A DNA stretch of 21,892 nucleotides from a virus, in IMG/VR virus record IMGVR_UViG_3300025789_000174, positions 1-21,892 of that record; one strand, given 5' to 3'. Every line of letters begins with the position of its first letter. The stretch's first letter is position 1. Of this stretch, positions 2,053-20,787 are shown piece by piece. Under the pieces are notes generated by a model. That model was not told the DNA's origin. It worked only from the letters and a program-made list of their open reading frames with translations, and did no database searches. The position numbers were made by a program, and so were the translations under genes.

Positions 2053-2643
2053 ATGTTAGCAATAGTAGAATACATAAAGAAAAATGGTTTAGATAATGCT
2101 ATCGAAACTTTTAATTTAAAGGCTAAATTATACGAAAATAAGGTTCACATTAAATATGACCAAATAGGTTCGGATATGTCTCTTAAGGAGGTTCAAGAAT
2201 GTCGTGGACTTATCCTAGATAGAAATACATTTGATGTAATCTCAATGTCCTTTTTCAAGTTCTTTAATAACGGTGAAACTAATGCTGCTAAGATAGACTG
2301 GGATACAGCTCATGTATTTGAAAAAGTTGATGGTTGCCTTGATGAAAATACGTTGATAACGACTAATGAAGGTGTTAAAACGATTAAGGAAATTTGTGAA
2401 GAAAAACTTAATTGTAAAGTCTTGTCATATTGGGTTAATAGTAATGAGATTATCTTTGATGATATAATTGGATGGTCAATTAAGGATAATATTAATGATT
2501 GGTATGAAATTAAATTGGATGACGAAACTTCAATTAAACTGACTGGTAATCATAAGGTTTGGTTACCAAAGCTAAATTGTTATAGACAAGTTTCAGATTT
2601 AACGGAAGCGGATGAATTCTTATTAAGTACTAAAAAAAATTAA
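2053..2643 (+). CDS. rnlA: RNA ligase Rnl1 N-terminal part fused to split-intein N half
   Basis: 196 residues. Residues 1-94 are the N-extein of a T4 Rnl1-type RNA ligase; ECRGLILDR and the motif I core EKVDG (predicted adenylated Lys91) are visible. At residue 95 the sequence switches to an intein: Cys1 with CLDENTLITTNEG (block A) and LTGNHKVWL (block B, with His). It ends after LTEADEFLLSTKKN at TAA 2641-2643, giving an IntN of 102 residues. The partner half starts at 3019. Removing the intein joins KVDG to S and gives a 374-residue ligase, the length of T4 Rnl1. Without splicing the ligase lacks everything after motif I, so trans-splicing should be essential for activity. The stop is preceded by an A AAA AAT slippery heptamer. 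Confidence 0.88.
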   Translation: MLAIVEYIKKNGLDNAIETFNLKAKLYENKVHIKYDQIGSDMSLKEVQECRGLILDRNTFDVISMSFFKFFNNGETNAAKIDWDTAHVFEKVDGCLDENTLITTNEGVKTIKEICEEKLNCKVLSYWVNSNEIIFDDIIGWSIKDNINDWYEIKLDDETSIKLTGNHKVWLPKLNCYRQVSDLTEADEFLLSTKKN

Positions 2644-3138
2644 ATTCTGGCAGCAATGTTTCAAATTTAGAAAAACGAATTGGTTATACTTTAGATAATT
2701 TAAATATTAAATTTGAAACTCAATATTTAATTAATAGGTTTTCTTATGATTATTATATCAATGATATAAATTTATTAATAGAGGTTAATGGTGATTTTTG
2801 GCGTGCTAACCCAATAAAATATTTACCTGATGATATATTACCATTTCCGAAAAGTATTGAAATTAAAGCCAAAGATTTATGGTTAAAGGATAAACGAAAG
2901 AATGAATTAGCGATTAAAAATGGTTTTAATATAGTTACAATTTGGGAAATGGAGATTAATAATTTAAATAGTGTTGAACTTGAAATATTTTTGTTAAATA
3001 AATTAAATAACTTTATAAATGGAGACTAACGTAGTTAAAATAAAATCAATTAAAAAAATTGATTCTAATTCGAAAAGATATGACATACAAACAAAATTAA
3101 CTAATAACTTTTTCGCTAATAATATTCTAGTTCATAAC
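2335..3138 (+). mobile_element. Split intein with embedded Vsr-like homing endonuclease, inserted in Rnl1 motif I
   Basis: The element runs from Cys1 (codon 2335) to the terminal His-Asn (3133-3138), with Ser as +1 residue (3139). It has three reading segments: IntN (ends 2643), an endonuclease frame (about 2634-3029) and IntC (starts 3019). The IntC half is 40 residues and ends YDIQ...NFFANNILVHN, closely like the NrdJ-1 class of natural split inteins as I remember it. Insertion between KVDG and S of ligase motif I is a typical choice of a slow-evolving active-site sequence. Confidence 0.85.
2634..3029 (+). CDS. Vsr-like (EDxHD-type) homing endonuclease frame inside the split intein
   Basis: This frame is open from just after a stop at 2631-2633 to TAA 3027-3029 and codes about 131 residues with no ATG before the C-terminal region. 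It lies -1 relative to the IntN frame. Visible motifs are YDYYINDINLLIEVNGDFW near the front and KDKRKNELAIKNGFNIVTIW later, the pattern of Vsr-fold homing endonucleases found between halves of split inteins. It would cut ligase alleles that lack the intein. Because it has no ordinary start, it may be made by -1 frameshifting from IntN at 2634-2640, from a non-AUG codon, or appear detached only because of a homopolymer error. Its end overlaps the IntC start by 11 bp. Confidence 0.7.
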   Translation, partial: KKLNSGSNVSNLEKRIGYTLDNLNIKFETQYLINRFSYDYYINDINLLIEVNGDFWRANPIKYLPDDILPFPKSIEIKAKDLWLKDKRKNELAIKNGFNIVTIWEMEINNLNSVELEIFLLNKLNNFINGD

Positions 3139-3981
3139 TCGATGATGCAAGTTTATTGGGACCCTTACGCTAATAAGTGGTTTGCTGGAACTACAGGTAC
3201 TGCCGAAGGTGAGGGTGAAGTAAACAATAAGTCTGGGACAACGTTTAATGATTTGTTTTGGCAAGTTGTAAACGACAAAGCTCCAAATATGCTTAGGTGG
3301 TTAAATAAGTTAAAGCATTGCACGTTTGTGTTTGAATTAACAACACCTTATAACATTGTGGTTAAGCCGCATGGTGAATCTAGTATTACACTTTTAGCTG
3401 CAAGAGATAATCAAACACTTAAAGAGTTAAGGTATATTGATTTAAAGGTATTAGCAACAACTTTTGGTGTGCCAATAGTTAAATTATTCGACTTAAAAGC
3501 TAAGAACTTTGGTGACTTGATTAGAACATTTGAAGGAATGCCATGGTCTGAAGAAGGTTATGTCGTAATGGATGAAAACTTCAATCGTGTTAAAGTTAAG
3601 AACCCAGCATACTGCGCTGTACATTTACTAAAAGGTAAATCAGCTGAACATAACATTTTAACAATCGTTAAGTCTAACGAAATTGAAGAATTCGCATCAA
3701 CTTTCCCAGAAAGAAAAGAAGAATTATTTAAGCTTAAGGCCAACTACGATTTGTTGAATGCAAAGTTAAATTCAGTGTGGGATGAACTAATACCAAGAAA
3801 GCCTAAAAACATAACAGCTAATGAAAAGAAGTTGTTTGCGGCTGCTGTATTTGAAGTTTGTAAGAAGCATAAGGTTGATAATTTCACTGGGTTATTCTTC
3901 CAATTGGAAGCTGGTAAAATAGAATCAGTTGATGAGTATTTGATGGAATATGACAATAAAAAGTTGTACCATATACTTTAA
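3019..3981 (+). CDS. rnlA: Split-intein C half fused to RNA ligase Rnl1 C-terminal part
   Basis: 320 residues from ATG 3019. Residues 1-40 are IntC with block F (KRYDIQTK...NNFFAN) and block G (NILVHN). Residue 41 is the +1 Ser, which completes ligase motif I (KVDG/S). Residues 41-320 are the rest of the ligase: motif III (FVFELTTPYN), motif IV (SEEGYVV) and motif V (RVKVKNPAY), followed by the helical C-terminal domain of Rnl1 enzymes. Rnl1 seals 5'-phosphate and 3'-OH RNA ends; in T4 it repairs tRNA cut by the host anticodon nuclease PrrC. The gene has its own ATG overlapping the end of the endonuclease frame, so the two ligase halves are separate polypeptides. A terminator hairpin follows at 3993. 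Confidence 0.88.
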   Translation: METNVVKIKSIKKIDSNSKRYDIQTKLTNNFFANNILVHNSMMQVYWDPYANKWFAGTTGTAEGEGEVNNKSGTTFNDLFWQVVNDKAPNMLRWLNKLKHCTFVFELTTPYNIVVKPHGESSITLLAARDNQTLKELRYIDLKVLATTFGVPIVKLFDLKAKNFGDLIRTFEGMPWSEEGYVVMDENFNRVKVKNPAYCAVHLLKGKSAEHNILTIVKSNEIEEFASTFPERKEELFKLKANYDLLNAKLNSVWDELIPRKPKNITANEKKLFAAAVFEVCKKHKVDNFTGLFFQLEAGKIESVDEYLMEYDNKKLYHIL

Positions 3982-4041: not shown

Positions 4042-4773
4042 ATGACAATTAAGCAAATTTTCGATGAAATCGCAAGCGAATCATCTACGAACAAAAAAGT
4101 TGAAATCCTTAACAAGTATAAAGACAATGACTTATTAAAGAGGGTTCTGTATTTGGCTAATTCACCTCGTATTAAGTTTTATATCAAGCAAATTCCAGAG
4201 TATGAATCTGGTCCATTTAATCAAGACTTATCAGTTGGTTTGGATAGCTTGAGTCCATTATCCTTAAGGCAATTAACTGGACATGCTGCCATAAATCACT
4301 TAGCTGCAACTCTTGAGTTTTGTAGCGAAGATGATGCTTATATCATCGAGCGTATCATCGAAAAGGATTGCAAAATTAATTTGGGTACTTCACTTATTAA
4401 TAAAGTATTTCCTAAACTAATTGAAGAAACACCTTACATGGGTGCTAAGGCTTTTGATGAGAAATTAGCTAAGGCTATATTTAAAGATGGTTCAGCTTTA
4501 AGCCAAGTTAAGATGGATGGTCGTTATTGCAATGCTGTAATAGCGAATAATTCAGTTGATATGGAAAGCCGCCAAGGTGAACCAACGCTATTAGGTGATG
4601 CGTATTTTATAAGCGAATTAAATCAGCTTAAGGATTGCGTTTTAAACGGTGAGTTGACAATGAAGTGTATTGAATCTAAATTTACTTTTAATAAAGACGA
4701 TTTAATCGAAATTGACGGTATTAAATATACCACCAAAGAAATAAAAAATAAATTTTTACCATTAATTGAATAA
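4042..4773 (+). CDS. ATP-dependent DNA ligase (T4 gp30 type), N-terminal piece
   Basis: 243 residues. The start and first 200 residues follow the T4 gp30 plan: helical N-terminal domain with DNDLLKRVLYLANSP, then motif I KMDGR near residues 156-160 (adenylated Lys) and motif III NGELT near 202-206. Family homology stops at LTMK (205-208). The last 35 residues (C209-E243, beginning CIESKFTF) are a foreign tail. The rest of the ligase resumes in the gene at 5705 after a GIY-YIG endonuclease gene. Joining residue 208 to residue 26 of that gene gives a 459-residue ligase, close to the usual 480-490. Either the two pieces assemble as subunits, or the RNA or protein is rejoined. It has its own promoter at 3990. 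Confidence 0.85.
   Translation: MTIKQIFDEIASESSTNKKVEILNKYKDNDLLKRVLYLANSPRIKFYIKQIPEYESGPFNQDLSVGLDSLSPLSLRQLTGHAAINHLAATLEFCSEDDAYIIERIIEKDCKINLGTSLINKVFPKLIEETPYMGAKAFDEKLAKAIFKDGSALSQVKMDGRYCNAVIANNSVDMESRQGEPTLLGDAYFISELNQLKDCVLNGELTMKCIESKFTFNKDDLIEIDGIKYTTKEIKNKFLPLIE
4654..4665 (+). repeat. 12-bp direct repeat at the DNA ligase break, left copy
   Basis: TTGACAATGAAG, codons Leu-Thr-Met-Lys 205-208 of the N piece. An identical, in-phase copy is at 5768-5779 in the C piece. Recombination between the copies would restore one uninterrupted ligase gene. Confidence 0.9.
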
Positions 4774-4811: not shown

Positions 4812-5708
4812 ATGTATGTAACTTATTTAATTATTTATAATGGTGATAAATTACCACCATTATATATTGGGTCAACTAGTTTAGAAAAAATAGAGAATGG
4901 GTATCGAGGGTCAATCTCATCGAAGAAATATAAAAATATTTTTAAAGAAGAGTTAAAAAGTAATTTTAACCTATTCGATGTTATCATTCTATCAAAACAT
5001 GAAACTAGAATTGAAGCATTGGAAATGGAATTAGATTTACAAAAAAAGTTTGATGTGGTAAAATCAAATAAATTTATGAATCAATCCTTAGCATCAGTTA
5101 ATGGCATGTTTGGTATGGATGTAAATGGTAAAAATAACCCAATGTTTGGTAAGAAACATTCAGACAAAACAAGAAATGTACTAAAGGAAAAACGTGGAAA
5201 TAATAAACGATATGAATTAACCGATAAACATAAAGAAATTATTAGTAAAACACACGCTAATAAAGTTATTTCTGAAAACACAAAAAAATTAATTTCAGAT
5301 AAATTAAAGGGTAAATACATAGGTAAAGATAATCCTATGTTTGGTAAAAAACATAGTGAAGAGACTAAAATTAAAATATCTAAAAGTAACAGTGGTAAAA
5401 TTAGAACAGATGAATTCAAACAAAGAACATCCGAATTAAATAAGGGTAAAATTATTTCTGAAGATACCAAGATAAAAATATCTAGGGCTAAAATCGGAAA
5501 AAAACGTACTTCTTTTAGTAAAGAGTGGCGAGAAAATATATCTAAAGCTAATAAAGGTAGAATTCTTAGTGAAGAAACTCGAAAAAAACTGAGTAAACCA
5601 AGAGAATCAACAAAATCGGTATGCCCATATTGTGGGTTTATTGGTGGTGGCGGTAATATGAAACGCTATCATTTTGAGAATTGTAAAATAAATAAAAATA
5701 AGGTATGA
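4812..5708 (+). CDS. GIY-YIG homing endonuclease with NUMOD3 repeats, in the DNA ligase gene
   Basis: 298 residues. The N-terminal GIY-YIG domain shows IIYNG then PPLYIGSTS (residues about 7-23). The central region has two clear NUMOD3 DNA-binding repeats, both containing NPMFGKKHS followed by basic residues, and two or three weaker copies (SEDTKIKIS, SEETRKKLS). The C-terminus ends in a putative zinc finger (CPYC, then H-x4-C). The plan is that of I-TevI-like phage homing endonucleases. It sits between the two pieces of the DNA ligase. Its TGA overlaps the ATG of the C piece (ATGA at 5705-5708), so the C piece is probably translated by coupling. It is paralogous to the gene at 8024, most clearly over the first 100 residues. 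Confidence 0.88.
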   Translation: MYVTYLIIYNGDKLPPLYIGSTSLEKIENGYRGSISSKKYKNIFKEELKSNFNLFDVIILSKHETRIEALEMELDLQKKFDVVKSNKFMNQSLASVNGMFGMDVNGKNNPMFGKKHSDKTRNVLKEKRGNNKRYELTDKHKEIISKTHANKVISENTKKLISDKLKGKYIGKDNPMFGKKHSEETKIKISKSNSGKIRTDEFKQRTSELNKGKIISEDTKIKISRAKIGKKRTSFSKEWRENISKANKGRILSEETRKKLSKPRESTKSVCPYCGFIGGGGNMKRYHFENCKINKNKV

Positions 5709-6535
5709 ACATTAATTCTAATGAAATAAAAAAAATAATAGTTAATAACGATGGTAGTCTTGAAATATTGACAATGAAGGGTATATCTCGTTACGAGAGC
5801 AACGGCATCATAGCATCTCTTATTTCAATTAGAAAGAAAGAATTAGATGGTAAGGATGTACGCAAGGAAATACTTGAGTTTGAAAAAGAACACATGGTTT
5901 ATCAAACAGCGTTGGATTCAATTATTTTCACTGCTTGGGATATGATAACACTTGAAGAATATACTGCCGCTAAATCAGTTAGACAATATCGTGAAAGATA
6001 CGCTGAATTGGTTGCGCTATTAAACGCTAATAATTTTACCAATCTTTCAGTTGTTGAAACAAAAGAGGTTAAGACTTATGAAGAAGCTATTGAACACTTT
6101 CAAGAGGTTTTAGCTAGAGGTGAAGAAGGTACAATACTTAAATCATCTAAGGGTGCTTGGAAAGACGGTAAACCTAACCATCAAATTAAGCTAAAAAAAG
6201 AAATTAATCTTGATTTAAAAATTGTAGGTTTTAATTACGGAACGGGTAAAAATAAAGACGTTATATCATCCATTGATGTTGAGAGTTCAGATGGTTTACT
6301 TAAAACGAGCCCGACAGGAATTAATGAATCTATGATGAAATTTATCACAGAAAATCAGGATAAACTTTTGAACACTATTATTGAGGTAAAGTGTTCTGGG
6401 TTGTCAAAGGATTCAGATGGTAATTATTCTTTGTTACACCCAGTATTCAAATCTTTACGTACTGATGAAAAGAGTATTGCTGATTCATTAGATGAGTGTA
6501 TTAAAATAGATAAAGCTGCTATGGGGTTATCTTAA
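5705..6535 (+). CDS. ATP-dependent DNA ligase (T4 gp30 type), C-terminal piece
   Basis: 276 residues. Residues 1-21 are an unrelated head (MNINSNEIKKIIVNNDGSLE). Ligase sequence resumes at LTMKGISRYESNG (22-34), matching the gp30 region just after motif III. Motif IV is EEGTILK and motif V is IKLKKEINLDLKIVGF, so the rest of the adenylation domain and the OB-fold are complete. The gene starts inside the stop of the endonuclease gene. The head does not end in the Asn needed for intein splicing, so this is not an obvious split intein. The arrangement resembles Aeromonas phage Aeh1 NrdA, where an inserted endonuclease produced two tailed subunits that remain active together. Confidence 0.85.
   Translation: MNINSNEIKKIIVNNDGSLEILTMKGISRYESNGIIASLISIRKKELDGKDVRKEILEFEKEHMVYQTALDSIIFTAWDMITLEEYTAAKSVRQYRERYAELVALLNANNFTNLSVVETKEVKTYEEAIEHFQEVLARGEEGTILKSSKGAWKDGKPNHQIKLKKEINLDLKIVGFNYGTGKNKDVISSIDVESSDGLLKTSPTGINESMMKFITENQDKLLNTIIEVKCSGLSKDSDGNYSLLHPVFKSLRTDEKSIADSLDECIKIDKAAMGLS
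5768..5779 (+). repeat. 12-bp direct repeat at the DNA ligase break, right copy
   Basis: TTGACAATGAAG, identical to 4654-4665 and in the same codon phase (Leu22-Lys25 of the C piece). Confidence 0.9.
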
Positions 6536-6713: not shown

Positions 6714-7130
6714 TTGTTAAAAAAACAATGGGTGAAGAATAATCATCAAGGTGTAAATGAATATCGTAAAAATTACTATTTAAATAATAAAGAAAAAATA
6801 CTAACAAAAAATAAAGAATGGAATAAAAAAAATGCGCATATTGTATCTTGGCGCACCATTTTGAAATCGCAACTTAGGAGAATGGGTAATAGTAAAGAAG
6901 GAAAAACAATTGATTTATTAGGGTATTCAGCGTTAGAACTGAAAAACCATATCGAATCCTTATTTACTGAAGGTATGACTTGGGATAATCATGGTGAATG
7001 GCATATTGACCATAAAATACCCGTAACTAAATTTGAAAAAAATGTTCCTCCACATATTGTAAATGCGTTAAATAATTTACAACCATTATGGGCGAACGAA
7101 AACAGAAGTAAATATAATAAAATTTTATAA
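6714..7130 (+). pseudogene. HNH endonuclease, probably 5'-truncated
   Basis: 138 residues from a TTG; there is no ATG in the frame before the catalytic region, and a stop lies just upstream (6705). The C-terminal half is a clear HNH core: GEWHIDHKIPV, then ALNNLQPLWANENRSKYNKI. Complete relatives usually begin with a cysteine-rich zinc ribbon, which is missing here; only the basic spacer (YYLNNKEKILTKNKEWNKKN) remains. Together with the reverse-strand fragment at 6519 this marks a spot where homing genes have inserted and decayed. A TTG-initiated functional nuclease remains possible. Confidence 0.6.
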
Positions 7131-7146: not shown

Positions 7147-7980
7147 ATGACAAGTAAACGACATATCGGGTTTCCATCTATTGACCAGTTTAAGACAGTT
7201 GTCTCCAACATCAATAGAAGACACAATTTTGTTGGTTTGGATGCCAACGGTGATGCAATTTATGACCCATCAAAACCTAAGCCAAAGCTTAAGTTTAAGG
7301 GTACGGTAAAACTACATGGTACCAACTTCGGTGTATGTTATAATGACATCGCTGGATTATGGGCACAATCTAGGGAAAATATAATCACCTCCCAAAAAGA
7401 TAATGCTGGCTCCGCTTTTTTTGTTGAGTCCAATACAGAAGCTTTCTTGGATTTATTTAACCAAGTAAAGAATAAGTTAAATTTGGATTTGACTCAAAAC
7501 ACAATTTCAATTTATGGTGAGTGGGCTGGTAAGGGTATTCAAAAGTCTGTTGCGATTTCCAATTTGGATAAGTCTATGTTTATTTTTGGTGTTAAGATTA
7601 CACCTCATCCAAAGGATGAAGATGATAAGACACCAGCTTATTGGGTTGATTCGTCATACCTAAGGAACCATGAGCATAGGATTTACAATATTGAGGATTA
7701 TGAGACTTATGAGATTGAAATCGATTTCAATTATCCTCAATTGGCTCAGAATAAGCTAATTGAAATGACTATTGCTGTTGAGGATGAATGTCCTGTTGGT
7801 AAAGCCTTTGGTCATGTTGCGTTAACAGACAATACAGCATATGAAGAAAATGGTAAAATTTGGTTTGAACGAGAAAATAGTTTTACAGATATATTAAAAA
7901 ATCAATTAATTGATGAATTTAGAATACTTCGTAATAAATATCCGATAGGTATAAATAAAATATTTTTTACTATTCTATAG
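7147..7980 (+). CDS. rnlB: RNA ligase Rnl2 type, N-terminal piece
   Basis: 277 residues. It begins like T4 Rnl2 (FPSIDQFK). Motif I is KLHGTNFGVCY with the adenylated Lys, motif III is IYGEWAGKGIQKSV, and motif IIIa is MFIFGVKI. Family homology runs to about residue 230 (ECPVGKAFG, then LTDNT). The last 47 residues (beginning AYEENGKIWF) are an unrelated tail. Motifs IV and V are absent and are found in the gene at 9032. Rnl2 seals nicked or broken RNA in duplexes. As with the DNA ligase, a GIY-YIG endonuclease gene separates the pieces; here too homology breaks just before motif IV. The start ATG follows the HNH remnant by 16 bp. Confidence 0.85.
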   Translation: MTSKRHIGFPSIDQFKTVVSNINRRHNFVGLDANGDAIYDPSKPKPKLKFKGTVKLHGTNFGVCYNDIAGLWAQSRENIITSQKDNAGSAFFVESNTEAFLDLFNQVKNKLNLDLTQNTISIYGEWAGKGIQKSVAISNLDKSMFIFGVKITPHPKDEDDKTPAYWVDSSYLRNHEHRIYNIEDYETYEIEIDFNYPQLAQNKLIEMTIAVEDECPVGKAFGHVALTDNTAYEENGKIWFERENSFTDILKNQLIDEFRILRNKYPIGINKIFFTIL

Positions 7981-8023: not shown

Positions 8024-9019
8024 ATGGAAAAAAAATTTGTTGTGTATCGAACAATTTATTCTGGTGATAGATTACCGAAATATTACATTGGTTCAACTAG
8101 TTTAGAAAAGATAAAATCTGGTTATTATGGTAGTGTCAGAAGTAAAAAATATAAAGATATTTTCTATTCTGAATTAAAACTACATCCTAATTTATTTAGT
8201 ATTGAGATTTTGTCATACCATGATTCTAGGAATGATGCACTTTCAGAAGAATTATTACAACAAATTAAACACAATGTTGTTGAGTCGGACGAATACTTTA
8301 ATGAAAGTTTTGCTAGTATAAATGGTTATTTTGGTAGACATGTCAAAGGCATTAGCCATCCAAAATTTGGTTTATCAAATTACAAAATTTGGATTAATAA
8401 ATATGGTTTAGATATTGCTAATGAAAAATTAAAAGTTTATTTAACGAAACAAAGTATATCTAACGGCGGTAAGAATAATCCAATGTTTGGTAGAAATAAA
8501 GAAGTTGTTGCAATTGATGTAAATAGCGGTCTGAAGGTTCGTGTAAATAAAGTCGAGTTTGATAATCGAATTGATTTATCTGGTCATACACTTGGATATG
8601 TTACGGTTATTGATAAATCAACTGGTGAAAAAATAACGATTAATAAATCTAATTATAACTTAGAAAAACATTTACATCATAACACAAATAGAAAACATAA
8701 TGATACAGTTAAAGCTAAACTCTCAAAAATTAGAAAGGGTTTAATAACCGCTAAAGATTGGGATGGTAATTATTATCGGGTGAGTAAAGATGACCCTAGA
8801 TTTGAATCAGGTGAATTATCAAATATTTTTAGTAAACGTTGGATAGTTGTTGATAATTTTGGTAAGAAATATAATGTTATGAATATTAAAAAATTTATGA
8901 AAAGTAAAAATATTCATTTTAATGAAAAAATTATAATTAACTCTGATGGTAGTGTAACAAATCATAATGTTAAAAAATATAATTCATTAAATGGTTGGAA
9001 TTTAAAATGTTTAGATTAA
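8024..9019 (+). CDS. GIY-YIG homing endonuclease, in the Rnl2 gene
   Basis: 331 residues. GIY-YIG domain with TIYSGDRLPKYYIGSTSLEK (residues about 9-28), closely matching the gene at 4812 through residue 100. One NUMOD3 repeat (GGKNNPMFGRN) is visible near 148-158. The C-terminal half is different from the first paralogue: it contains TAKDWDGNYYRVSKDDPRFESG, a module common in phage homing endonucleases, and a final DNA-binding-like segment. The catalytic half has therefore been recombined with a new target-recognition half, as expected if each copy targets a different ligase gene. It ends 12 bp before the Rnl2 C piece. Confidence 0.85.
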   Translation: MEKKFVVYRTIYSGDRLPKYYIGSTSLEKIKSGYYGSVRSKKYKDIFYSELKLHPNLFSIEILSYHDSRNDALSEELLQQIKHNVVESDEYFNESFASINGYFGRHVKGISHPKFGLSNYKIWINKYGLDIANEKLKVYLTKQSISNGGKNNPMFGRNKEVVAIDVNSGLKVRVNKVEFDNRIDLSGHTLGYVTVIDKSTGEKITINKSNYNLEKHLHHNTNRKHNDTVKAKLSKIRKGLITAKDWDGNYYRVSKDDPRFESGELSNIFSKRWIVVDNFGKKYNVMNIKKFMKSKNIHFNEKIIINSDGSVTNHNVKKYNSLNGWNLKCLD

Positions 9020-9031: not shown

Positions 9032-9514
9032 ATGTATAAAATTAAATTAATTAGTGGTGGTTCGTCTGAACATCAAGAAGAAATTAACAAGGTTATTGAT
9101 TTGGATATAAATACAATCGGTGAGGGTATTGTTTTCTCTTATTATGCTGAGGATGGTGAGGTTTATCGGTTCAAATCTAAGGGAACTAAACACTCAAAGG
9201 CTTCTAAAGTTACAACACTTAAGCCAGTTGATGATGCTAAAATCAATAACATTATTGAAACTGTTAATAAGGTTTGTGTTTCTTGGAGACTTGAGCAAAT
9301 GCTTGACAAGACCTTTGACCTTATGAATGGTGGTACCATTGACATCAAAAGGCTTGGTGATTTTATTAGAAATGTTATCGCCGATATTCTTAAAGAAGAA
9401 TTGGAAACAATAGCTGAGGCTGGCCTTGAACCTAAAGACATTAATGCTAAGGTTTCTGAGAGATGTCGAAATTACTTTTTTCAAAAACAAAATGAAGAAG
9501 TTGGGCTTGTTTAA
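9032..9514 (+). CDS. rnlB: RNA ligase Rnl2 type, C-terminal piece
   Basis: 160 residues. Residues 1-27 are an unrelated head (MYKIKLISGGSSEHQEEINK). From residue 28 it follows Rnl2: motif IV TIGEGIVF and motif V YRFKSKGTKHS, then the helical C-terminal domain. Joined at NT (residue 230 of the N piece to residue 28 here) it would form a ligase of about 362 residues; T4 Rnl2 has 334. The codons AAT ACA occur at both break points (7831-7836 and 9110-9115), in phase. Whether the two polypeptides assemble is unknown, but both keep all catalytic motifs intact, which argues against simple decay. Confidence 0.82.
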   Translation: MYKIKLISGGSSEHQEEINKVIDLDINTIGEGIVFSYYAEDGEVYRFKSKGTKHSKASKVTTLKPVDDAKINNIIETVNKVCVSWRLEQMLDKTFDLMNGGTIDIKRLGDFIRNVIADILKEELETIAEAGLEPKDINAKVSERCRNYFFQKQNEEVGLV

Positions 9515-13552: not shown

Positions 13553-13803
13553 GAATAATATATATAGATAAATCGTTACAATGTGATACAACACATGATA
13601 ATATTCAATTAATTGATGGTAAAATATATCATTGGTGTGTTAAAACAGAAATGTTAAAACATAATGAAACATTGCAGTTATTCTTAAAACGAAAAACAGC
13701 TTATGTGAATTTAAAAAAACCAGAAATTAATACTATATTAATTTATGATGTGGTACCAATTGAATCAGCCTTAATGGTAAGGTATGCTTTAATTACTACT
13801 TAA
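13549..13803 (+). CDS. Unknown 84-residue protein
   Basis: ATG 13549 overlaps the stop of the nucleotidyltransferase, so it is probably translated with it. MRIIYIDKSLQCDTTHDN, a middle segment with HWCVKTEMLKHNE, and a beta-like C-terminus (INTILIYDVVPIESALMVRY). I recognise no family. Its end overlaps the convergent gene on the other strand by 8 bp. Confidence 0.7.
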   Translation: MRIIYIDKSLQCDTTHDNIQLIDGKIYHWCVKTEMLKHNETLQLFLKRKTAYVNLKKPEINTILIYDVVPIESALMVRYALITT

Positions 13804-14122
13804 AAAATGGGTTATCTCGCAATAAGAGTTCGATGGTTTCATCGAGCTTTTTGCATGTTTGTTGGAACCCAATTACTTCTTCATCACTTAACCTAAAGAA
13901 TTCATTCTTTGCAAGCGTTTGTTTATAGTTGTATTTTGCGTGAAGCATTGCTTCAACTTTCTTATAGTTTTTAGATTCATAAGTATTAAGAATTGAAAGC
14001 TTATTCGAATTTCCAGTTTGCAAATTCTTAAGTCTTTGTTCTGCTGGATTCTTTGAAACACCAATCTTATGCGCTTCATCGCCATTCTTGTCCACCTCTA
14101 ATATCAAGTATACATAACCCAT
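13796..14122 (-). CDS. T5orf172-type GIY-YIG domain protein
   Basis: 108 residues on the reverse strand, the only confident reverse gene. GYVYLILEV near the start, HKIGVSKNPAEQRLKNLQTG, then YKKVEAMLHAKYN and NEFFRLSDEEV match the T5orf172/Mug113 group of the GIY-YIG nuclease superfamily. Such proteins are common in phages as short stand-alone proteins of unknown role; many may be nucleases. It converges on the gene at 13549 and diverges from the gene at 14168 with only 45 bp between starts. Its orientation suggests separate acquisition. Confidence 0.75.
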   Translation of the reverse strand: MGYVYLILEVDKNGDEAHKIGVSKNPAEQRLKNLQTGNSNKLSILNTYESKNYKKVEAMLHAKYNYKQTLAKNEFFRLSDEEVIGFQQTCKKLDETIELLLRDNPFFK

Positions 14123-14982: not shown

Positions 14983-15054
14983 GTGCCTTTGTCCGAGCGG
15001 TTTAGGTAGAGTTCTGCAAAAGCTCTTACGGCGGTTCAAATCCGTCAAGGCACT
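14983..15054 (+). tRNA. tRNA-Cys (GCA)
   Basis: Acceptor GTGCCTT/AAGGCAC. Anticodon stem GAGTT/AGCTC with loop CTGCAAA (anticodon GCA). T-arm GGCGG TTCAAAT CCGTC. No encoded CCA. The D-stem is short. Confidence 0.88.
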
Positions 15055-15071
15055 CTTTAAAATTAAAAACA

Positions 15072-15234
15072 ATGGAAAAAAAATGACATCAAAAAAGCAT
15101 TGTATAAGGAAAAGCCATTAGCCACCTTATCACATTATGAAGAAGGATGGAATTGGCATAACCGAAACCTACCCAACCATAAGTGGAGAGAGTATAAGAG
15201 TTGGAAGTATAATAGAAAAACTAAGTGGAAATGA
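15072..15234 (+). pseudogene. Small basic aromatic protein with a frame break at an 8-A run
   Basis: ATG 15072 opens MEKK and hits TGA at 15084. Losing one A from the 8-A run (15076-15083) gives one frame to TGA 15232-15234, containing ALYKEKPLATLSHYEEGWNW, NLPNHKWREYKSWKY and a lysine-rich end. The Trp/Tyr/Lys-rich style matches the next gene at 15282, so the frame is probably a real protein, with either +1 frameshifting, mutation or a sequencing error. Confidence 0.5.
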
Positions 15235-15281
15235 AAAAGAGATTTGATGCCTTGTAACACTCTAATGTGTAACAATGCAAA

Positions 15282-15551
15282 ATGAAAAAAATGAACAAGA
15301 AGCTGTATGATAGAACAGTTGACAACAAAACGTACAAGTTATGCCATTATCAACAAGAAAATATTTGTTGTTTAAGATGTGCGAAAAGAAGAAGAAGAAA
15401 TTATTTTTATTATGACTATGACGGTGGGAAACATTGTTATCCAAGTTGGAAATTAGTAAGTAAAAATAAGAAGCAATGGATGCCAAAAAAACTTAAGATT
15501 GAGGAAGAAAAACCCAATCGTTGGTATAGTAGAGGTGACATTACTTGGTAA
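15282..15551 (+). CDS. Small basic cysteine-containing protein
   Basis: 89 residues. CHYQQENICCLRCAKRRRR near residues 20-38 has a possible C-x8-CC-x2-C metal-binding cluster. It is followed by an aromatic stretch (NYFYYDYDGGKHCYPSWKLV) and a basic C-terminus. A nucleic-acid-binding small protein is a reasonable guess; no family is recognised. It lies between tRNA-Cys and tRNA-Leu on the same strand, so it is probably on the same transcript. Confidence 0.7.
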   Translation: MKKMNKKLYDRTVDNKTYKLCHYQQENICCLRCAKRRRRNYFYYDYDGGKHCYPSWKLVSKNKKQWMPKKLKIEEEKPNRWYSRGDITW

Positions 15552-15623
15552 TTGCGACATCAAGACATATTAAAGTGTCGTGATAGGTTTAAAAGTTACA
15601 AATTGTTGCAATAATTGCGACAT
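15549..15623 (+). repeat. Pair of 12-bp direct repeats
   Basis: TAATTGCGACAT at 15549-15560 and again at 15612-15623. The first copy spans the stop region of the preceding gene. No function is evident. Confidence 0.7.
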
Positions 15624-15645
15624 TTCACCAGATAAATGGTGAAAT
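15622..15645 (+). other. 9-bp hairpin just before tRNA-Leu(TAA)
   Basis: ATTTCACCA (15622-15630) pairs with TGGTGAAAT (15637-15645), loop GATAAA. There is no T-tract, and it ends 2 bases before the tRNA, so it suits a processing signal better than a terminator. Confidence 0.6.
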
Positions 15646-15647
15646 AT

Positions 15648-15732
15648 GGGGGTGTGGTGGAATGGTAGACACGCAGGTCTTAAAAACCTGTGGACCGTAA
15701 GGTCCGTGTGAGTTCGACTCTCATTGCCCCTA
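15648..15732 (+). tRNA. tRNA-Leu (TAA)
   Basis: Acceptor GGGGGTG/TGCCCCT with wobble ends. Anticodon stem CAGGT/ACCTG with loop CTTAAAA (anticodon TAA). Long variable arm (GGACCGTAAGGTCC). T-arm GTGAG TTCGACT CTCAT. No encoded CCA. Confidence 0.92.
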
Positions 15733-15745
15733 CACAACTGTGTTT

Positions 15746-15841
15746 CTGATAGGGTTGCTCAGTAGGAGCTCCAGTAAACCTTATCCGTTGATGAATAGTG
15801 GTCATGACATGAGTTCATTTTTCTGGTACGACAATCCAGAA
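15746..15841 (+). ncRNA. Structured spacer between two tRNA-Leu genes, possible small RNA
   Basis: Three hairpins in 96 bases without a reading frame: GATAGGGTT (15748-15756) with AACCTTATC (15777-15785), enclosing GCTC/GAGC; ATGAA (15791) with TTCAT (15814); and TTCTGG (15821) with CCAGAA (15836). The first 5' half (GATAGGG TT GCTC..GAGC) looks like a tRNA acceptor and D-arm, so this may be a tRNA remnant or processing structure. Confidence 0.35.
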
Positions 15842-15844
15842 TAC

Positions 15845-15932
15845 GGCCCTATGAGCAAATTGGTAAAGCTTGCGGTCTAAGAAACCGTGGAAAACATTAG
15901 AAACGTTCTCAGTTCAAATCTGAGTAGGGCTA
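15845..15932 (+). tRNA. tRNA-Leu (AAG)
   Basis: Acceptor GGCCCTA/TAGGGCT. D-arm AGC..GCT with TTGGT loop. Anticodon stem GCGGT/ACCGT with loop CTAAGAA, anticodon AAG (15879-15881), codon CUU. 19-base variable arm typical of Leu. T-arm CTCAG TTCAAAT CTGAG. A34 is unusual for a bacterial tRNA-Leu. No encoded CCA. Confidence 0.82.
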
Positions 15933-15934
15933 CT

Positions 15935-16156
15935 ATGAGTTTTAATTTTGATGAAAAGAAAATTGGTGATATAGTTCAGATGACGGATTATTTTATAAGT
16001 ATAAATCCTAGTGAACATATTCAGGAATTTAAAGATTGTGAAGGCGAAGTTATTGGTTATAGTGATGAAGGTTATACTGATTACTTAGATGTTAGATGGC
16101 AACCTAGTGGGTTAAGATATGGTTATCATTGGGTACATTTAAAACTAGTCCAATAA
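15935..16156 (+). CDS. Small protein with SH3-like pattern
   Basis: 73 residues from ATG 15935, which lies 2 bases after the tRNA-Leu(AAG) 3' end; an upstream in-frame start at 15887 is inside the tRNA and is rejected. KKIGDIVQMTDYF, then GEVIGYSDEGYTDYLDVRW and GYHWVHLKLV give the alternating beta pattern of a small SH3-like barrel. The fold is a guess from pattern only. TAATG overlap with the next gene implies coupling. Confidence 0.65.
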   Translation: MSFNFDEKKIGDIVQMTDYFISINPSEHIQEFKDCEGEVIGYSDEGYTDYLDVRWQPSGLRYGYHWVHLKLVQ

Positions 16157-16329
16157 TGGCTAAAAAAGTATCAAAAGAAGTTCAGATTAAACATTCTGAG
16201 GATTATGTTGAATTTCTAATTAAGCGGTTAAATTCTAACAACTATAAGTTAGCAGCAACTAAGGAAGAGTATGCGGCAACTAAAGCTAAATTAGATAAAG
16301 AGCGATTGATACTTAAGTTGTTAAAATAA
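16156..16329 (+). CDS. Small coiled-coil-like protein
   Basis: 57 residues from ATG 16156, overlapping the previous stop (TAATG). MAKKVSKEVQIKHSEDYVEF starts an almost entirely helical, Lys/Glu/Leu-rich chain ending LDKERLILKLLK, suited to a coiled coil. No family recognised. tRNA-Leu(TAG) begins 2 bases after its stop. Confidence 0.65.
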   Translation: MAKKVSKEVQIKHSEDYVEFLIKRLNSNNYKLAATKEEYAATKAKLDKERLILKLLK

Positions 16330-16330
16330 T

Positions 16331-16412
16331 GGGGGTATGCTGGAAATGGTATACAGCTACGGTTTAGACCCGTAGGTCAAAAGATTTGCAAGTTCGAACC
16401 TTGTTACCCTCA
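16331..16412 (+). tRNA. tRNA-Leu (TAG)
   Basis: Acceptor GGGGGTA/TACCCTC. D-arm CTG..CAG. Anticodon stem TACGG/CCGTA with loop TTTAGAC (anticodon TAG). Long variable arm. T-arm GCAAG TTCGAAC CTTGT. No encoded CCA. Confidence 0.9.
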
Positions 16413-16416
16413 CAAA

Positions 16417-16496
16417 GATGATTTCAGCAAATAAATAGGATAAAAATTTACACTTAAAATGCAAATCGAAAGGGTTCAAATCCCTAAAAATCATCT
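16417..16496 (+). tRNA. Degenerate tRNA-like element with TAA anticodon loop
   Basis: An end-to-end stem (GATGATTT with AAATCATC), T-arm AGGG TTCAAAT CCCT, and a loop CTTAAAA on a stem with one mismatch (TTACA/TGCAA). Spacing between anticodon arm and T-arm fits a short-variable-loop tRNA. The D-arm does not pair well although TAGGAT is present. Leu tRNAs need a long variable arm, so this may be a decayed tRNA or a tRNA mimic. Confidence 0.45.
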
Positions 16497-16520
16497 TGTT
16501 TTTTATTAACATATTAAATA

Positions 16521-16560
16521 ATAGTAGAGTTTATATTTACATTTTCATAAACTCTACTAT
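16521..16560 (+). repeat. Perfect 14-bp inverted repeat upstream of the HNH gene
   Basis: ATAGTAGAGTTTAT (16521-16534) and ATAAACTCTACTAT (16547-16560), 12-base loop. The TATTTAT motif starts at its last base, and ATG 16571 follows by 10 bases. No T-tract. It may regulate expression of the endonuclease. Confidence 0.8.
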
Positions 16561-16570
16561 ATTTATTAAT

Positions 16571-17239
16571 ATGAGAAAAGATATTATAGAAAAAGAAAAT
16601 GATGTTTTACAAATGATTGCAAATAATGACCCTAAAGCAATGATTTGTAGGTTTTTAAATTGTAGACCAGAGGTTCTTGAAAAATATTTAAAATTAAAGG
16701 GTATTAAATATAGTGGTAATCGTAGAATGGTTGGTCGGAGAAATCATCCGCATAAAAAATCTGTGGATGAATATTTGGCTCAAGATAGGATATCAATACA
16801 TAAATTAAGAATTAAACTTATAGAAGAGGGTATTAAAAAAAATGAGTGTGAAAATTGTAAATTAACTGAATGGTGTGGAAGTAAAATTCCTTTAGAGTTG
16901 CATCATATAGATGGAAATAAATTAAATAACGATTTAAATAACCTACAAATCTTATGTCCAAATTGCCATGCGTTAACACCAAATCACGCTGGAAAAAAGA
17001 ATAAAAAGAAATTTGAAGATAAAGCTATCCATAAAAGAATAAAACTTTGTAAATGCGGCAAGACAATAAAAAAAACTAGTAATGAATGTCTTAGTTGTTA
17101 TCATGAAAAACAACGTAAGATTAAAAATGCTAATTTAACGGAATTAATAGATAGTGTTAATAAAATTGGTTATTTAGCGACTGGTAGAAAATATGGTGTT
17201 AGTGATAACACAATTAGAAAATATATAAACAAAAAATAA
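16571..17239 (+). CDS. HNH homing endonuclease
   Basis: 222 residues from ATG 16571 (the frame is open upstream to 16496, but that stretch is the inverted repeat). N-terminal helix-turn-helix-like region. HNH core: Cys93-x2-Cys96, LELHHIDGNKLNNDLNNLQI with His111/His112 and Asn124, then Cys129-x2-Cys132-His133. A second zinc ribbon (C160, C162, C173, C176) follows, then a final DNA-binding segment TGRKYGVSDNTIRKYINK. Multi-module architecture is typical of free-standing phage homing endonucleases. It lies at the end of tRNA cluster 1 next to the degenerate tRNA-like element. The stop is directly followed by the ATG of the next gene. Confidence 0.88.
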   Translation: MRKDIIEKENDVLQMIANNDPKAMICRFLNCRPEVLEKYLKLKGIKYSGNRRMVGRRNHPHKKSVDEYLAQDRISIHKLRIKLIEEGIKKNECENCKLTEWCGSKIPLELHHIDGNKLNNDLNNLQILCPNCHALTPNHAGKKNKKKFEDKAIHKRIKLCKCGKTIKKTSNECLSCYHEKQRKIKNANLTELIDSVNKIGYLATGRKYGVSDNTIRKYINKK

Positions 17240-18040
17240 ATGTTTTACGTTATTCAAGAGAATGTCTTTAGGGAAGAACATTATGATATGTTAATTGATT
17301 TAATCAAACGACATAAGTTTGAATATGATATAGTTAAATATCGACCATTTTTAAATGAGATAGTTGCACTTCCAGTTGAAAATGATGGTGAACAACAAGA
17401 AGACGTTATTTATAAAACAGACCGTAAAAATGTTTTTTGTTTCGGTGCTGTTTCAATGGCCAAAGCTGCCACAAAGTATGGTTGGAACCCTGGTTCAATG
17501 ATGAATAAAAACCATGACTATGAAGTATATGGAAAAGCATTTGGATTTGAAAACATGTTAAATGGCGAGGGTCATGTTATCAATTTTATTGATAAAATAC
17601 CTATTGATAACTTTTTATTCTTCGCAAGACCAACAAGAGATACGAAGGTTTTTTCAGGACAAATATTTACACAAGATTCTTGGAAAGAATACGTTGCTGC
17701 TGTTAGACATATCAGTGATGAAACAAAAATTCTTATTTCTCCCTTAAAACAGATTCAACAAGAAGTTAGATGCTGGGTTATTGGTGGTAAGATAGTAACT
17801 GCAAGTTCATATAAGATAGGTACTCGTGTAGTTTATACCAACTATGATGATGAAACATTCTTTACAGACTTCGCACAAAAGATGATTGATGTATATCAAC
17901 CAGCCGAAGCATTCGTTATTGATATTGCCTTGGCTAACGACAAATTGAGTGTCATTGAAATTAATAATATCAATTCAGCTGGATTTTATGATTGTAATAT
18001 GGTAAAACTCATAACAGCGTTAGAAAATCATTTTAATTAA
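17240..18040 (+). CDS. ATP-grasp (R2K-type) protein
   Basis: 266 residues, ATG adjacent to the previous stop. The C-terminal half shows an ATP-grasp ligase pattern: VRCWVIGGKIVTASSYKIGT followed by EAFVIDIALANDKLSVIEIN and NINSAGFYDCN, giving the Asp/Glu/Asn metal-binding set. This matches the R2K clade of RimK-like ATP-grasp proteins common in phages. Such enzymes usually join a carboxylate to an amine, for example peptide or protein tagging; the substrate here is unknown. A strong terminator follows at 18039, ending this transcription unit. Confidence 0.75.
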   Translation: MFYVIQENVFREEHYDMLIDLIKRHKFEYDIVKYRPFLNEIVALPVENDGEQQEDVIYKTDRKNVFCFGAVSMAKAATKYGWNPGSMMNKNHDYEVYGKAFGFENMLNGEGHVINFIDKIPIDNFLFFARPTRDTKVFSGQIFTQDSWKEYVAAVRHISDETKILISPLKQIQQEVRCWVIGGKIVTASSYKIGTRVVYTNYDDETFFTDFAQKMIDVYQPAEAFVIDIALANDKLSVIEINNINSAGFYDCNMVKLITALENHFN

Positions 18041-18066
18041 GCTACTTTCGGGTAGCTTTTTTATTT
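18039..18066 (+). terminator. Intrinsic terminator after the ATP-grasp gene
   Basis: Stem AAGCTAC (18039-18045) with GTAGCTT (18052-18058) around TTTCGG, followed by a T-rich run. Confidence 0.85.
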
Positions 18067-18095
18067 TATAGAAATATTTATATAAAAGTCGTTTA

Positions 18096-20414
18096 ATGAA
18101 ATTATATAAATTATATTCCCAATTACTTAACGAGGATTTTAAATCACAAACTGTTAATTTTATCAGACAAGGATTTGAACCAGATATTGTTAAGTCATAC
18201 ATTGATAAATTCAAACACATACGAGATAATAAATACAAAGAAATCTTTGATGAAAATTTAAAAGTATCTGTACCTTCAAAAGAAAGGTTAAATATTGATG
18301 CTTATAAAAATTTCCATGATTTGGAGGTTGTTGTTGATTATGTATCTGGTAAAAGAGCCGTCAATACCAATATGACAAAAGGCGGTAAAGAAAATATTGA
18401 AGTTGATGGAACCCCAATTTATGATGATAAAAATTATGAAGTTTATTATGCTGATACACCTAGAGCTTGTATAAAGTATAAGGGTAAATTTCCGTATTCT
18501 TGGTGTGTTGCTAGGTCGGATTCAGCGAATATGTTTTACACTTATCGTTTTAAACCCTACGAACCAGCTTTTTATTTCATTAAGAATAAAAAGGAAACTG
18601 ATAAGGAATTTAGTCTTTGGAACATGGGTAAGAATGTGTTTCAAGGTAAATTTAGTAACCCTTATCACTTTTTTGTTATTCAAGTTCCAAAAAATGCAAA
18701 TATTGATGATAACAAAACACAACAGTATATTGTAACATCAGCAAATAATGATGGTGATAAACAAATGAGTTGGGATGAAATTATTGCTATAAATCCTAAT
18801 TTAAATTCAATTAAAGAAGTCTTAGTACCTAAACCACTCAGTGAAGGTGAAAGAAAGAAAATTGAAAGATTTAAAAATGGTATTAATGATAAGGAATTTG
18901 CTAAGTTAACCTATGAAGAAAAAAGAGATTATCTGGATATATACCCAACAATTGGTAGACCAATAACATCAAAACAATTAAAGGAGTTACCAGATGACCT
19001 ACTAAATTTATATGTTTCTTTTGGTATTGGTTTAGATGATGAAGGTTTTGAATTTATAAAACCTAAAAAAGACATTCTTAAAAGATATGCTCAAATAAGC
19101 AAAAGAAAACTTGAAGAATACTTAAAAACAGACAATTATCAGAGAAAACAACTTAAGATGATGTATAGTGAGTTAATTGTTTTATCCGATGAAGACATTA
19201 AGAGTTATTTGGAAAGTTTAAAACCTTATGAGATAAAACAATTTATACGTTTAAATGGTGAAGATAAATTTGAATTATTAGAAAAGCATTTACCTGATAA
19301 ATTTGGTGCTCAGTTTCAATCTAATAAACAGCTTATTTTAATGGCCCAGTCTGGTGATGAAGAAGCATTAAACAAATTAGCTTCATTAATACCAGAAGAT
19401 ATCGAATTTGATTTTTATGGTAAGTACATAGTATTTGAATTTGACAATACTGATAGTGAAAAGTTAAAAAGAGAATTAGATAACGATACATTGGATTTTT
19501 ATAGTAGACTAGATTATAACGAATGGAATAGCAGTTATAATAATGATTATTATTTTGATGATGAATCTTCCCTAAATGATACTTACGATTTTCATATTGA
19601 ATCGGTGTTAAAAGATGATGAAACACTAAGAGATGATTTACTTAGAATTGGAATCCAACCAGATTTAGAGTCTGTTAAGGATTTATTAGTAACATATAAA
19701 AAAGATTCATCAATTAAAGAATACATGGAAGAAAAGTATTCAGAAGGTAGAGATAATGCTCAAGAAAAAACATGGGAAAAACTTAGGGATGGTATAAAAT
19801 CAATAGCTTATATTGATGATTATCGTAATTATAGTGTTTATATTAATGTTGCTTCTTTTGTATTTTACTTGAACGATAATGAATTTTTAACATCGGATAT
19901 TGATAATTTTATTACAAAAATGGCATATTTACTTGAAAATATAATGGAGGATAACGACCAAATTAGTTATGTTGAAAGCATGTATGATGAGGTAAATGAA
20001 GGTGGTTATGATTTTACCGTTGGTAATGAAGTAAATGAAAGAGTTAAAAGTGAGATTCAAGATGCCATATATGAATTTACATCTCAAGATGATGAAGATG
20101 AAACAGATTATGCGAATAATTTAGATTCATCAAAAATTCATAAACTTAAAGGTGAGGTTATTAAATTATTAAATGATACACTTCGTAATCTAGGTCAATC
20201 AGAAACTGCGTCAACAATTGAAAATGACATTGTAAGAATTGATATTGATAGACAAAGATTCCATTTAGATGGTAAAGTATTTGTTAGTATAACTGACAAA
20301 CAAAATAATAAAAAACATGATGGTTATGTTTATATAAAAGACTTACCAACTTACTTTAAAAATTATAAATTGTTTGAAACAATACAAAGAATAAAATCAA
20401 TAATTAAGTATTAA
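18096..20414 (+). CDS. Large unknown phage protein (772 residues)
   Basis: Starts MKLYKLYSQLLNEDF, a leader of the type seen in other genes here, 14 bases after a TATTTAT motif. Residues about 110-190 are the most distinctive: CIKYKGKFPYSWCVAR, NMFYTYRFKPYEPAFYFIKN and FSLWNMGKNVFQGKFSNPYH, rich in aromatics with two Cys. The middle (250-450) is helical with repeated LxxLP-type segments. The last 300 residues are very acidic and Tyr/Asp-rich. No signal peptide or membrane span. I recognise no family. The size, acidity and leader would suit a virion-packaged or internal protein, which is inference only. Confidence 0.8.
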   Translation: MKLYKLYSQLLNEDFKSQTVNFIRQGFEPDIVKSYIDKFKHIRDNKYKEIFDENLKVSVPSKERLNIDAYKNFHDLEVVVDYVSGKRAVNTNMTKGGKENIEVDGTPIYDDKNYEVYYADTPRACIKYKGKFPYSWCVARSDSANMFYTYRFKPYEPAFYFIKNKKETDKEFSLWNMGKNVFQGKFSNPYHFFVIQVPKNANIDDNKTQQYIVTSANNDGDKQMSWDEIIAINPNLNSIKEVLVPKPLSEGERKKIERFKNGINDKEFAKLTYEEKRDYLDIYPTIGRPITSKQLKELPDDLLNLYVSFGIGLDDEGFEFIKPKKDILKRYAQISKRKLEEYLKTDNYQRKQLKMMYSELIVLSDEDIKSYLESLKPYEIKQFIRLNGEDKFELLEKHLPDKFGAQFQSNKQLILMAQSGDEEALNKLASLIPEDIEFDFYGKYIVFEFDNTDSEKLKRELDNDTLDFYSRLDYNEWNSSYNNDYYFDDESSLNDTYDFHIESVLKDDETLRDDLLRIGIQPDLESVKDLLVTYKKDSSIKEYMEEKYSEGRDNAQEKTWEKLRDGIKSIAYIDDYRNYSVYINVASFVFYLNDNEFLTSDIDNFITKMAYLLENIMEDNDQISYVESMYDEVNEGGYDFTVGNEVNERVKSEIQDAIYEFTSQDDEDETDYANNLDSSKIHKLKGEVIKLLNDTLRNLGQSETASTIENDIVRIDIDRQRFHLDGKVFVSITDKQNNKKHDGYVYIKDLPTYFKNYKLFETIQRIKSIIKY

Positions 20415-20461
20415 AACTAGTTCTTAAAGTCACTAAAAAAAAAATTTTTTAAAAATAATTC

Positions 20462-20502
20462 AAAAAAAACTTGACAATTCAAAAACTTTTCGTATATTTG
20501 CA
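20462..20502 (+). repeat. 41-bp direct repeat carrying a promoter, copy 2
   Basis: Identical to 14769-14809; similarity continues to about 20514. Confidence 0.9.
20471..20500 (+). promoter_or_regulatory. Promoter of tRNA cluster 2
   Basis: TTG (20471-20473), a 19-bp spacer, TATATTTG (20493-20500), with A/T tracts upstream. The region 20415-20470 otherwise holds only A/T-rich sequence. Confidence 0.82.
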
Positions 20503-20536
20503 TATATTTATTAACAACAAGTAACAATTAAAAGAT

Positions 20537-20635
20537 ATGAAAAAGGCATATACATATTATCAACCGAAAACGCAAGGGGGCAAAACTCCTAATAGGCTGG
20601 GTGTATCTTTTTCTGATGAAGATGATTGTAAGTAA
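20537..20635 (+). CDS. 32-residue peptide, first gene of tRNA cluster 2
   Basis: MKKAYTYYQPKTQGGKTPNR then an acidic end (SFSDEDDCK). Polar and unlike the hydrophobic peptide of cluster 1, but in the same position between promoter and terminator. No family recognised. Confidence 0.5.
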   Translation: MKKAYTYYQPKTQGGKTPNRLGVSFSDEDDCK

Positions 20636-20655
20636 ACAATTAGTAAGATATAAGT

Positions 20656-20697: not shown

Positions 20698-20698
20698 T

Positions 20699-20773: not shown

Positions 20774-20787
20774 CACAGATTGGTTGG

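What the first reader, a model, noticed from the sequence alone, without database searches (positions are those of the whole stretch)
2335..3138. New natural split intein in the active-site motif of an RNA ligase
IntN (102 residues, Cys1, block B His) and IntC (40 residues, own ATG, ending HN before Ser) flank the KVDG/S junction of motif I. Halves and lengths are close to the efficient NrdJ-1 class as I recall it. The ligase can only be active after trans-splicing, and the joined product has exactly 374 residues.
Basis: partly seen in the sequence, partly recalled or inferred. Interest (0 to 1): 0.85.

Follow-up and report, generated by a model that had tools for sequence, protein, structure and literature searches.

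The report
Split intein breaking phage RNA ligase
A phage RNA-ligase gene is cut in two, in the middle of its catalytic motif, by a natural split intein that should stitch the two protein halves back together; it is a well-supported new member of a known kind of mobile element whose DNA-cutting partner gene is decaying here.

Summary
A 94-aa ligase N half (ends KVDG) runs into a 102-aa IntN with its own stop. A separate ATG gene carries a 40-aa IntC ending HN, followed by Ser and 280 aa of ligase. Splicing would give 374 aa. The two nearest relatives (84% and 75% identical) have uninterrupted 374-aa ligases joined at the same point (KVDG|SMMQVYW). Both halves match NrdJ-1 best among solved structures.

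(1) The gap holds a truncated EDxHD/Vsr-type homing-endonuclease gene without a start codon. Relatives have it intact (about 300-370 aa, own ATG). The locus is therefore a "fractured gene" of the kind Dassa et al. described in 2009, with its endonuclease decaying. (2) The same split intein sits at the same ligase site in 11 distinct phage lineages, scattered over the ligase tree (8 gains/losses; 74 of the 80 best ligase loci are empty). It is a mobile element seen at every stage: intact, decayed or lost endonuclease. (3) Kin of it occupy motif I of other RNA-ligase types.

Trans-splicing itself is inferred, not shown. Verdict: real, a new member of a known kind.

The parts
2053..2334 (+). Rnl1-type RNA ligase, N extein (94 aa), ends in motif I K91-V-D-G94
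   Evidence: Pfam RNA_lig_T4_1 28.6 bits vs cut-off 28.3; PHROG 562; 80% identical to the same stretch of uninterrupted L003
2335..2640 (+). IntN, 102 aa: Cys1, block B T70-G-N-H73; stop TAA 2641-2643
   Evidence: NCBIfam TIGR01445 above cut-off; C1, T70, N72, H73 invariant in 10 aligned members; profile best PDB hit NrdJ-1 8ubs
2634..3026 (+). Remnant of an EDxHD/Vsr-type homing endonuclease, 131 codons, -1 frame relative to IntN, no ATG/GTG/TTG start; N-terminal zinc-finger/linker region lost; FWH to FWR
   Evidence: Best PDB I-Bth0305I 3r3p E 1.4e-5; 46-54% identical to endonucleases of relatives; open frame in 0 of 5000 shuffles, no usual start codon
3019..3138 (+). IntC, 40 aa, own ATG, ends H39-N40; +1 residue is Ser95 of the ligase
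   Evidence: NCBIfam TIGR01443 above cut-off; NrdJ-1 8ubs E 8e-6; start, H39 and N40 positions invariant in 10 aligned members, the L007 start codon being GTG
3139..3978 (+). Rnl1-type RNA ligase, C extein (280 aa), carries motifs III-V (FELTTPY, EEGYVV, KVKNPAY); stop 3979-3981
   Evidence: PHROG 562 E 3e-24; 85% and 76% identical to L003 and L004; E66, E139-G140, K152 and K154 invariant

Best explanation
The RNA ligase is made as two polypeptides: Lig(1-94)-IntN and IntC-Lig(95-374). IntN and IntC fold together into one Hint domain. Cys1 of IntN takes the acyl group of Gly94, which passes to Ser95. The terminal Asn of IntC cyclises, and the halves become one 374-aa ligase with a complete motif I (KVDGS). 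The element spreads as DNA: in relatives a free-standing EDxHD/Vsr-type homing endonuclease between the halves would cut intein-free ligase alleles at this conserved spot, and repair copies the whole IntN-endonuclease-IntC cassette in. In this phage the element arrived fairly recently and its endonuclease has since lost its start and DNA-binding half. The splicing halves stay intact because the phage needs the ligase. Shown here: anatomy, boundaries against empty alleles, conservation, sporadic distribution, endonuclease decay. Inferred: trans-splicing, homing by the intact relatives, need for the ligase.
For: Both halves pass curated intein cut-offs and match NrdJ-1 best among solved structures. 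Empty alleles of identical spliced length, 374 aa. Eleven distinct bearers all have IntN closed by a stop (at 99-102 aa in ten; 171 aa in L011) and IntC with its own start, always before Ser. Relatives hold a complete own-start endonuclease between the halves: six at this ligase site, two in other ligases. On a 68-row ligase tree the 11 bearers need 8 gains or losses, at least 6 forced by supported branches; the window nests (100/99) among five intein-free ligases. The intein halves are kept while the endonuclease is decayed (window, L007, L025, L061) or gone (L038, L050).
Against: No splicing experiment exists. A single-sequence IntN search against PDB is weak (E 0.02 at best), and the IntN structure model is low confidence (pLDDT 58.6; intein hits rank first but are not significant). 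Homing is inferred from distribution and homology only.
Confidence: 0.9

Rival explanations
1. It is an ordinary contiguous intein with an inserted endonuclease, and the two frame changes (after the A8 run at 2632-2639 and before 3019) are assembly or sequencing errors.
For: IntN and IntC are in the same frame, with the endonuclease frame open between them; one base at the A8 run would fuse IntN to the endonuclease.
Against: A contig from another metagenome record is identical. Ten distinct relatives also have the stop after IntN and a separate start before IntC, several of them around a complete own-start endonuclease.
Confidence: 0.02
2. The locus is dead: the halves no longer splice and the ligase is a broken gene on its way out.
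For: The endonuclease is decaying.
Against: All intein catalytic residues and ligase motifs are intact, and the ligase halves are together 84% identical to an intact relative without any stop. A dead ligase would not be expected to keep a 280-aa C half, with its own start codon, open.
Confidence: 0.05
3. The endonuclease remnant is still made, as an IntN-endonuclease fusion by -1 ribosomal slippage on the A8 run (ACT AAA AAA AAT TAA), so the element is still mobile.
For: The 131-codon frame is stop-free at 22% G+C (0 of 5000 shuffles); the -1 frame continues directly as KKLNSG, where relatives have the start of the nuclease domain.
Against: The His of the FWH motif, present in all the intact relatives of the alignment, is Arg. 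The zinc-finger and linker region is gone. No relative seen here uses a frameshift at this place. A recent deletion explains the open frame as well.
Confidence: 0.05
4. The two halves work without splicing, by non-covalent association or RNA-level splicing.
For: Genes split by a homing endonuclease without an intein are known in phages (Aeh1 nrdA/mobE, PMC2988022), and the neighbouring DNA ligase may be one.
Against: Exact Cys1...HN|Ser boundaries and conserved splicing blocks; no intron family matches in the window.
Confidence: 0.02

Closest known systems
Fractured genes with split inteins and free-standing EDxHD/Vsr-like endonucleases (Dassa et al. 2009, NAR 37:2560; not held here, recalled; cited in PMC12350094 and PMC7090010)
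   Same: Conserved enzyme broken by a split intein; own-start IntC; free-standing Vsr-type endonuclease between the halves in relatives; phage genomes
   Different: Host gene is an Rnl1-type RNA ligase cut inside motif I (I do not recall this host gene there and could not check); in this window the endonuclease is a start-less remnant
NrdJ-1 split intein (PDB 8ubs, 9omb)
   Same: Best PDB match of both halves; similar half lengths; IntC ending FFAN.ILVHN
   Different: Different host protein and site; IntN only distantly related (found by profile, not by the single sequence)
Split intein in DNA polymerase of Campylobacter phage CP21 (L041)
   Same: IntN, endonuclease and IntC as three separate consecutive ORFs, with Cys1 and HN|Ser; nuclease domain 42% identical to the remnant over the matched part
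   Different: Host is gp43 DNA polymerase; endonuclease is intact
Contiguous motif-I intein in RNA ligase of Mycobacterium phage Beem (L039)
   Same: Inserted in motif I of an RNA ligase, KLHG|S, and ends FFANHVLVHN
   Different: Contiguous, larger insert (apparently with a LAGLIDADG-type domain, judged by eye); another ligase type

Membership tests
Intein (Hint splicing domain, class 1) | Nucleophile Cys/Ser at position 1 | tested here: met
   Cys1 invariant in 10 aligned members
Intein (Hint splicing domain, class 1) | Block B TxxH | tested here: met
   T70-G-N-H73, T and H invariant; TIGR01445 35.2 bits vs 24.5
Intein (Hint splicing domain, class 1) | C-terminal His-Asn followed by Cys/Ser/Thr | tested here: met
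   HN|S; TIGR01443 16.6 bits vs 15.6; invariant in relatives
Intein (Hint splicing domain, class 1) | Precise insertion relative to an intein-free allele | tested here: met
   L003 and L004; 74 of the 80 best ligase loci are empty at the site
Intein (Hint splicing domain, class 1) | Catalyses splicing | not testable with these tools
   Needs expression
Natural split intein | Halves on separate reading frames with own stop and own start | tested here: met
   TAA at 2641, ATG at 3019, TAA at 3016-3018 in the IntC frame just before it; same layout in 10 other lineages
Fractured gene (split intein + free-standing endonuclease) | Complete free-standing homing endonuclease gene between the halves | tested here: not met
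   In the window only a start-less, truncated remnant; met in L006, L008, L009, L010, L011, L014, L059, L060
EDxHD/Vsr-type endonuclease | Homology to the I-Bth0305I or Vsr catalytic domain | tested here: met
   3r3p E 1.4e-5 for the remnant, 1.6e-4 for the profile; Vsr 1cw0 E 0.046
EDxHD/Vsr-type endonuclease | Conserved acidic residues and His of the nuclease domain | tested here: inconclusive
   E13, D39 and E50 of the remnant are in invariant alignment columns; the His of FWHANP is Arg in the window
T4 Rnl1-type RNA ligase | Pfam RNA_lig_T4_1 domain and motifs I, III, IV, V | tested here: met
   Intact L003 57 bits vs 28.3; motifs invariant. The T4 RnlA equivalog cut-off (242 bits) is far from met by the C half (37 bits), so it is not filed as an RnlA equivalog

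The most novel reading that the evidence does not exclude
This is a dedicated lineage of split inteins that has specialised on motif I of nucleic-acid ligases (Rnl1 KxDG|S, KxHG|S-type and KMDGEN|C RNA ligases). It moves between them with a matched endonuclease, and trans-splicing of the broken active site acts as a post-translational switch for phage RNA repair.
Probability: 0.12. Interest if true: 0.65.

Novelty: new member of a known kind. Interest (0 to 1): 0.45.

Why it matters
The locus is one of 14 distinct natural split inteins found here in phage RNA ligases (11 at the Rnl1 site, 3 in other ligases). They are candidates for the fast, orthogonal protein-joining tools now taken from NrdJ-1 and gp41-1. 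The set also shows the homing cycle caught at several stages (endonuclease intact, truncated, frameshifted, gone) in split rather than contiguous inteins, so the loss of the endonuclease after fixation can be studied directly. A split inside the KxDG nucleotidyl-transfer motif gives a very clean activity test for splicing.

Tried and rejected
(1) Assembly error breaking a contiguous intein: rejected by the identical second contig and ten split relatives. (2) Group I or II intron around the endonuclease: no Rfam match at gathering thresholds in the window, and intein boundaries fit exactly. (3) IntN structure prediction: pLDDT 58.6, not usable as proof; the top Foldseek hits are Npu/Ssp DnaE inteins but at E 0.07 or worse. 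(4) IntN in one genome per prokaryote species: no relative found, so these inteins appear phage-borne. (5) Whether the intein tree conflicts with the ligase tree: both trees of bearers are too poorly resolved. (6) Excess of Ser over Thr at +1 in bearers (11/11 vs 21/57, Fisher p 8e-5): not used as evidence, since the sequences are related. (7) The papers on fractured genes (2009) and I-Bth0305I (2011) are not held; their content is recalled. (8) No paper found on a split intein in an RNA ligase among those held.

Full report
OBSERVATION. The window is a 21,892-base IMG/VR virus record. ORF 2053-2643 encodes 196 aa and ORF 3019-3981 encodes 320 aa. The first is 94 aa of an Rnl1-type RNA ligase ending KVDG, followed by 102 aa starting CLDENTLITT. 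The second is 40 aa ending ILVHN, followed by SMMQVYW and the rest of the ligase. Joined, the exteins give exactly 374 aa. The coordinates, lengths and residues in the finding are all correct.

IS IT AN INTEIN? IntN exceeds NCBIfam's curated cut-off for intein N-terminal regions (35.2 vs 24.5 bits) and IntC that for C-terminal regions (16.6 vs 15.6). Pfam's Intein_splicing matches each half, in the expected part of the profile, below its whole-domain cut-off. Against PDB sequences IntC hits NrdJ-1 first (8ubs, E 8e-6). IntN as a single sequence hits DnaE inteins weakly, but a profile of ten members hits NrdJ-1 first over almost its whole length (E 1.2e-5).

EMPTY SITES. The nearest ligases, L003 (84% over 374 aa) and L004 (75%), are uninterrupted 374-aa proteins with EKVDG|SMMQVYW at the junction. 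Among the 80 best ligase loci, 74 are empty at this site and 6 carry the intein.

THE GAP. Between the halves, frame 0 is open from 2634 to 3026 (131 codons, 22% G+C; 0 of 5000 shuffles open) but has no usable ATG, GTG or TTG start. It matches the I-Bth0305I catalytic domain (3r3p, E 1.4e-5). In relatives the same place holds a complete free-standing gene of about 300-370 aa with its own ATG. That gene begins with a CxxC...H...H zinc-finger-like segment (KCxKC...KMFKLHIKNSH), passes through a DUF7487 stretch, and ends in the Vsr/EDxHD-like domain. In the window about 200 N-terminal residues are missing and FWHANP reads FWRANP. The ORF begins where the relatives' nuclease domain begins, directly behind IntN. 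The ATG of IntC overlaps the end of the endonuclease frame, in the window as in L014, so IntC was probably once coupled to endonuclease translation and now starts alone (inference).

FAMILY AND MOBILITY. Eleven distinct lineages carry this split intein at the same Rnl1 site: the window, L006-L011, L014, L025 (with near copies L026-L030), L038 and L050/L136. All have a stop after IntN (99-102 aa in ten; 171 aa in L011), an IntC with its own start, and Ser at +1. On a 68-row ligase tree the label needs 8 changes, at least 6 of them forced by supported branches. The window nests at 100/99 support among five intein-free ligases. Recurrent gain and loss is what a mobile element gives. The endonuclease is intact in L006, L008, L009, L010, L011 and L014; frameshifted in L007; truncated in L025 and the window; absent in L038 and L050. 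The splicing halves are complete in all of them. This is the pattern of the homing cycle (BMC Evol Biol 6:94, PMC1654191, abstract): the endonuclease is free to decay after invasion, while splicing stays under selection through the host protein.

OTHER LIGASES. Split inteins of the same family, again with a stop after IntN and an own-start IntC, interrupt motif I of other RNA ligases: KMDGEN|C in L059, KLHG|S in L060 and KIHG|S in L061. The endonuclease is intact in L059 and L060 and a 49-aa remnant in L061. Mycobacterium phage Beem has a contiguous intein at KLHG|S. Motif I of ligases is thus a repeated intein target.

MECHANISM. Motif I (K91) lies in the N half. Motifs III (FELTTPY), IV (EEGYVV) and V (KxKNP) lie in the C half, and their key residues are invariant. 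From general knowledge of covalent nucleotidyltransferases, neither half alone should be active. Standard class-1 protein trans-splicing would restore KVDGS. This step is inferred.

RELATION TO KNOWN SYSTEMS. The arrangement is that of the fractured genes of Dassa et al. 2009 (recalled; the paper is not held; cited as the source of the EDxHD/Vsr family in PMC12350094). Campylobacter phage CP21 shows the same architecture in its DNA polymerase. A split intein in an Rnl1 RNA ligase was not found in the papers searched, so the host gene and site appear new, but the kind is known. Strictly, the window itself no longer meets the fractured-gene definition, because its endonuclease gene is a remnant; it is a split intein derived from one.

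UNEXPLAINED. The remnant has no stop although it has no start. A recent deletion is the simplest reading. Low-level -1 slippage on the A8 run (2632-2639) would also do it, and is untested.

Noticed in passing
window 4042-4773, 4812-5708, 5705-6535; L144, L145, L146: The neighbouring ATP-dependent DNA ligase is split at GELTM|GISRY by a GIY-YIG/NUMOD3 endonuclease ORF, with a 12-nt repeat TTGACAATGAAG at both edges and no Rfam intron match. In three other phages the N part ends at the same site with a protein-conserved 32-36-aa tail (..IEIDGvKYt..EIxNKF..), and in two of them the C part bears a conserved head (MNSNxIKxIxxNNDGS). There is no Cys1 or HN, so it is not an intein; the pieces may reassociate non-covalently. 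Worth a look of its own.
   Followed up: partly
window 7147-7980, 8024-9019, 9032-9514: The Rnl2-type RNA ligase is likewise split, at AFG|IGEGIVF next to motif IV, by a second GIY-YIG ORF of the same PHROG family (10820). Three adjacent ligase genes are thus each broken by a mobile element, while L003 and L004 have all three intact.
   Followed up: partly
L059, L060, L061: Split inteins of the same family in motif I of other RNA-ligase types (KMDGEN|C, KLHG|S, KIHG|S), two with intact endonucleases and one with a 49-aa remnant.
   Followed up: partly
L039 899-3301; L040 1082-3205: Mycobacterium phage Beem RNA ligase carries a contiguous intein in KLHG|S that its record does not name; Pseudaeromonas phage KLEP7 Rnl2-like ligase has a contiguous intein at GEWAG.
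   Followed up: partly
window 14983-21405: Eight tRNA genes, all on the + strand.
   Followed up: no
window 6714-7130 (+), 13796-14122 (-), 16496-17239 (+): Further small ORFs that look like HNH and GIY-YIG-type nucleases from their sequences, so this contig is rich in homing-type nucleases (by eye).
   Followed up: no
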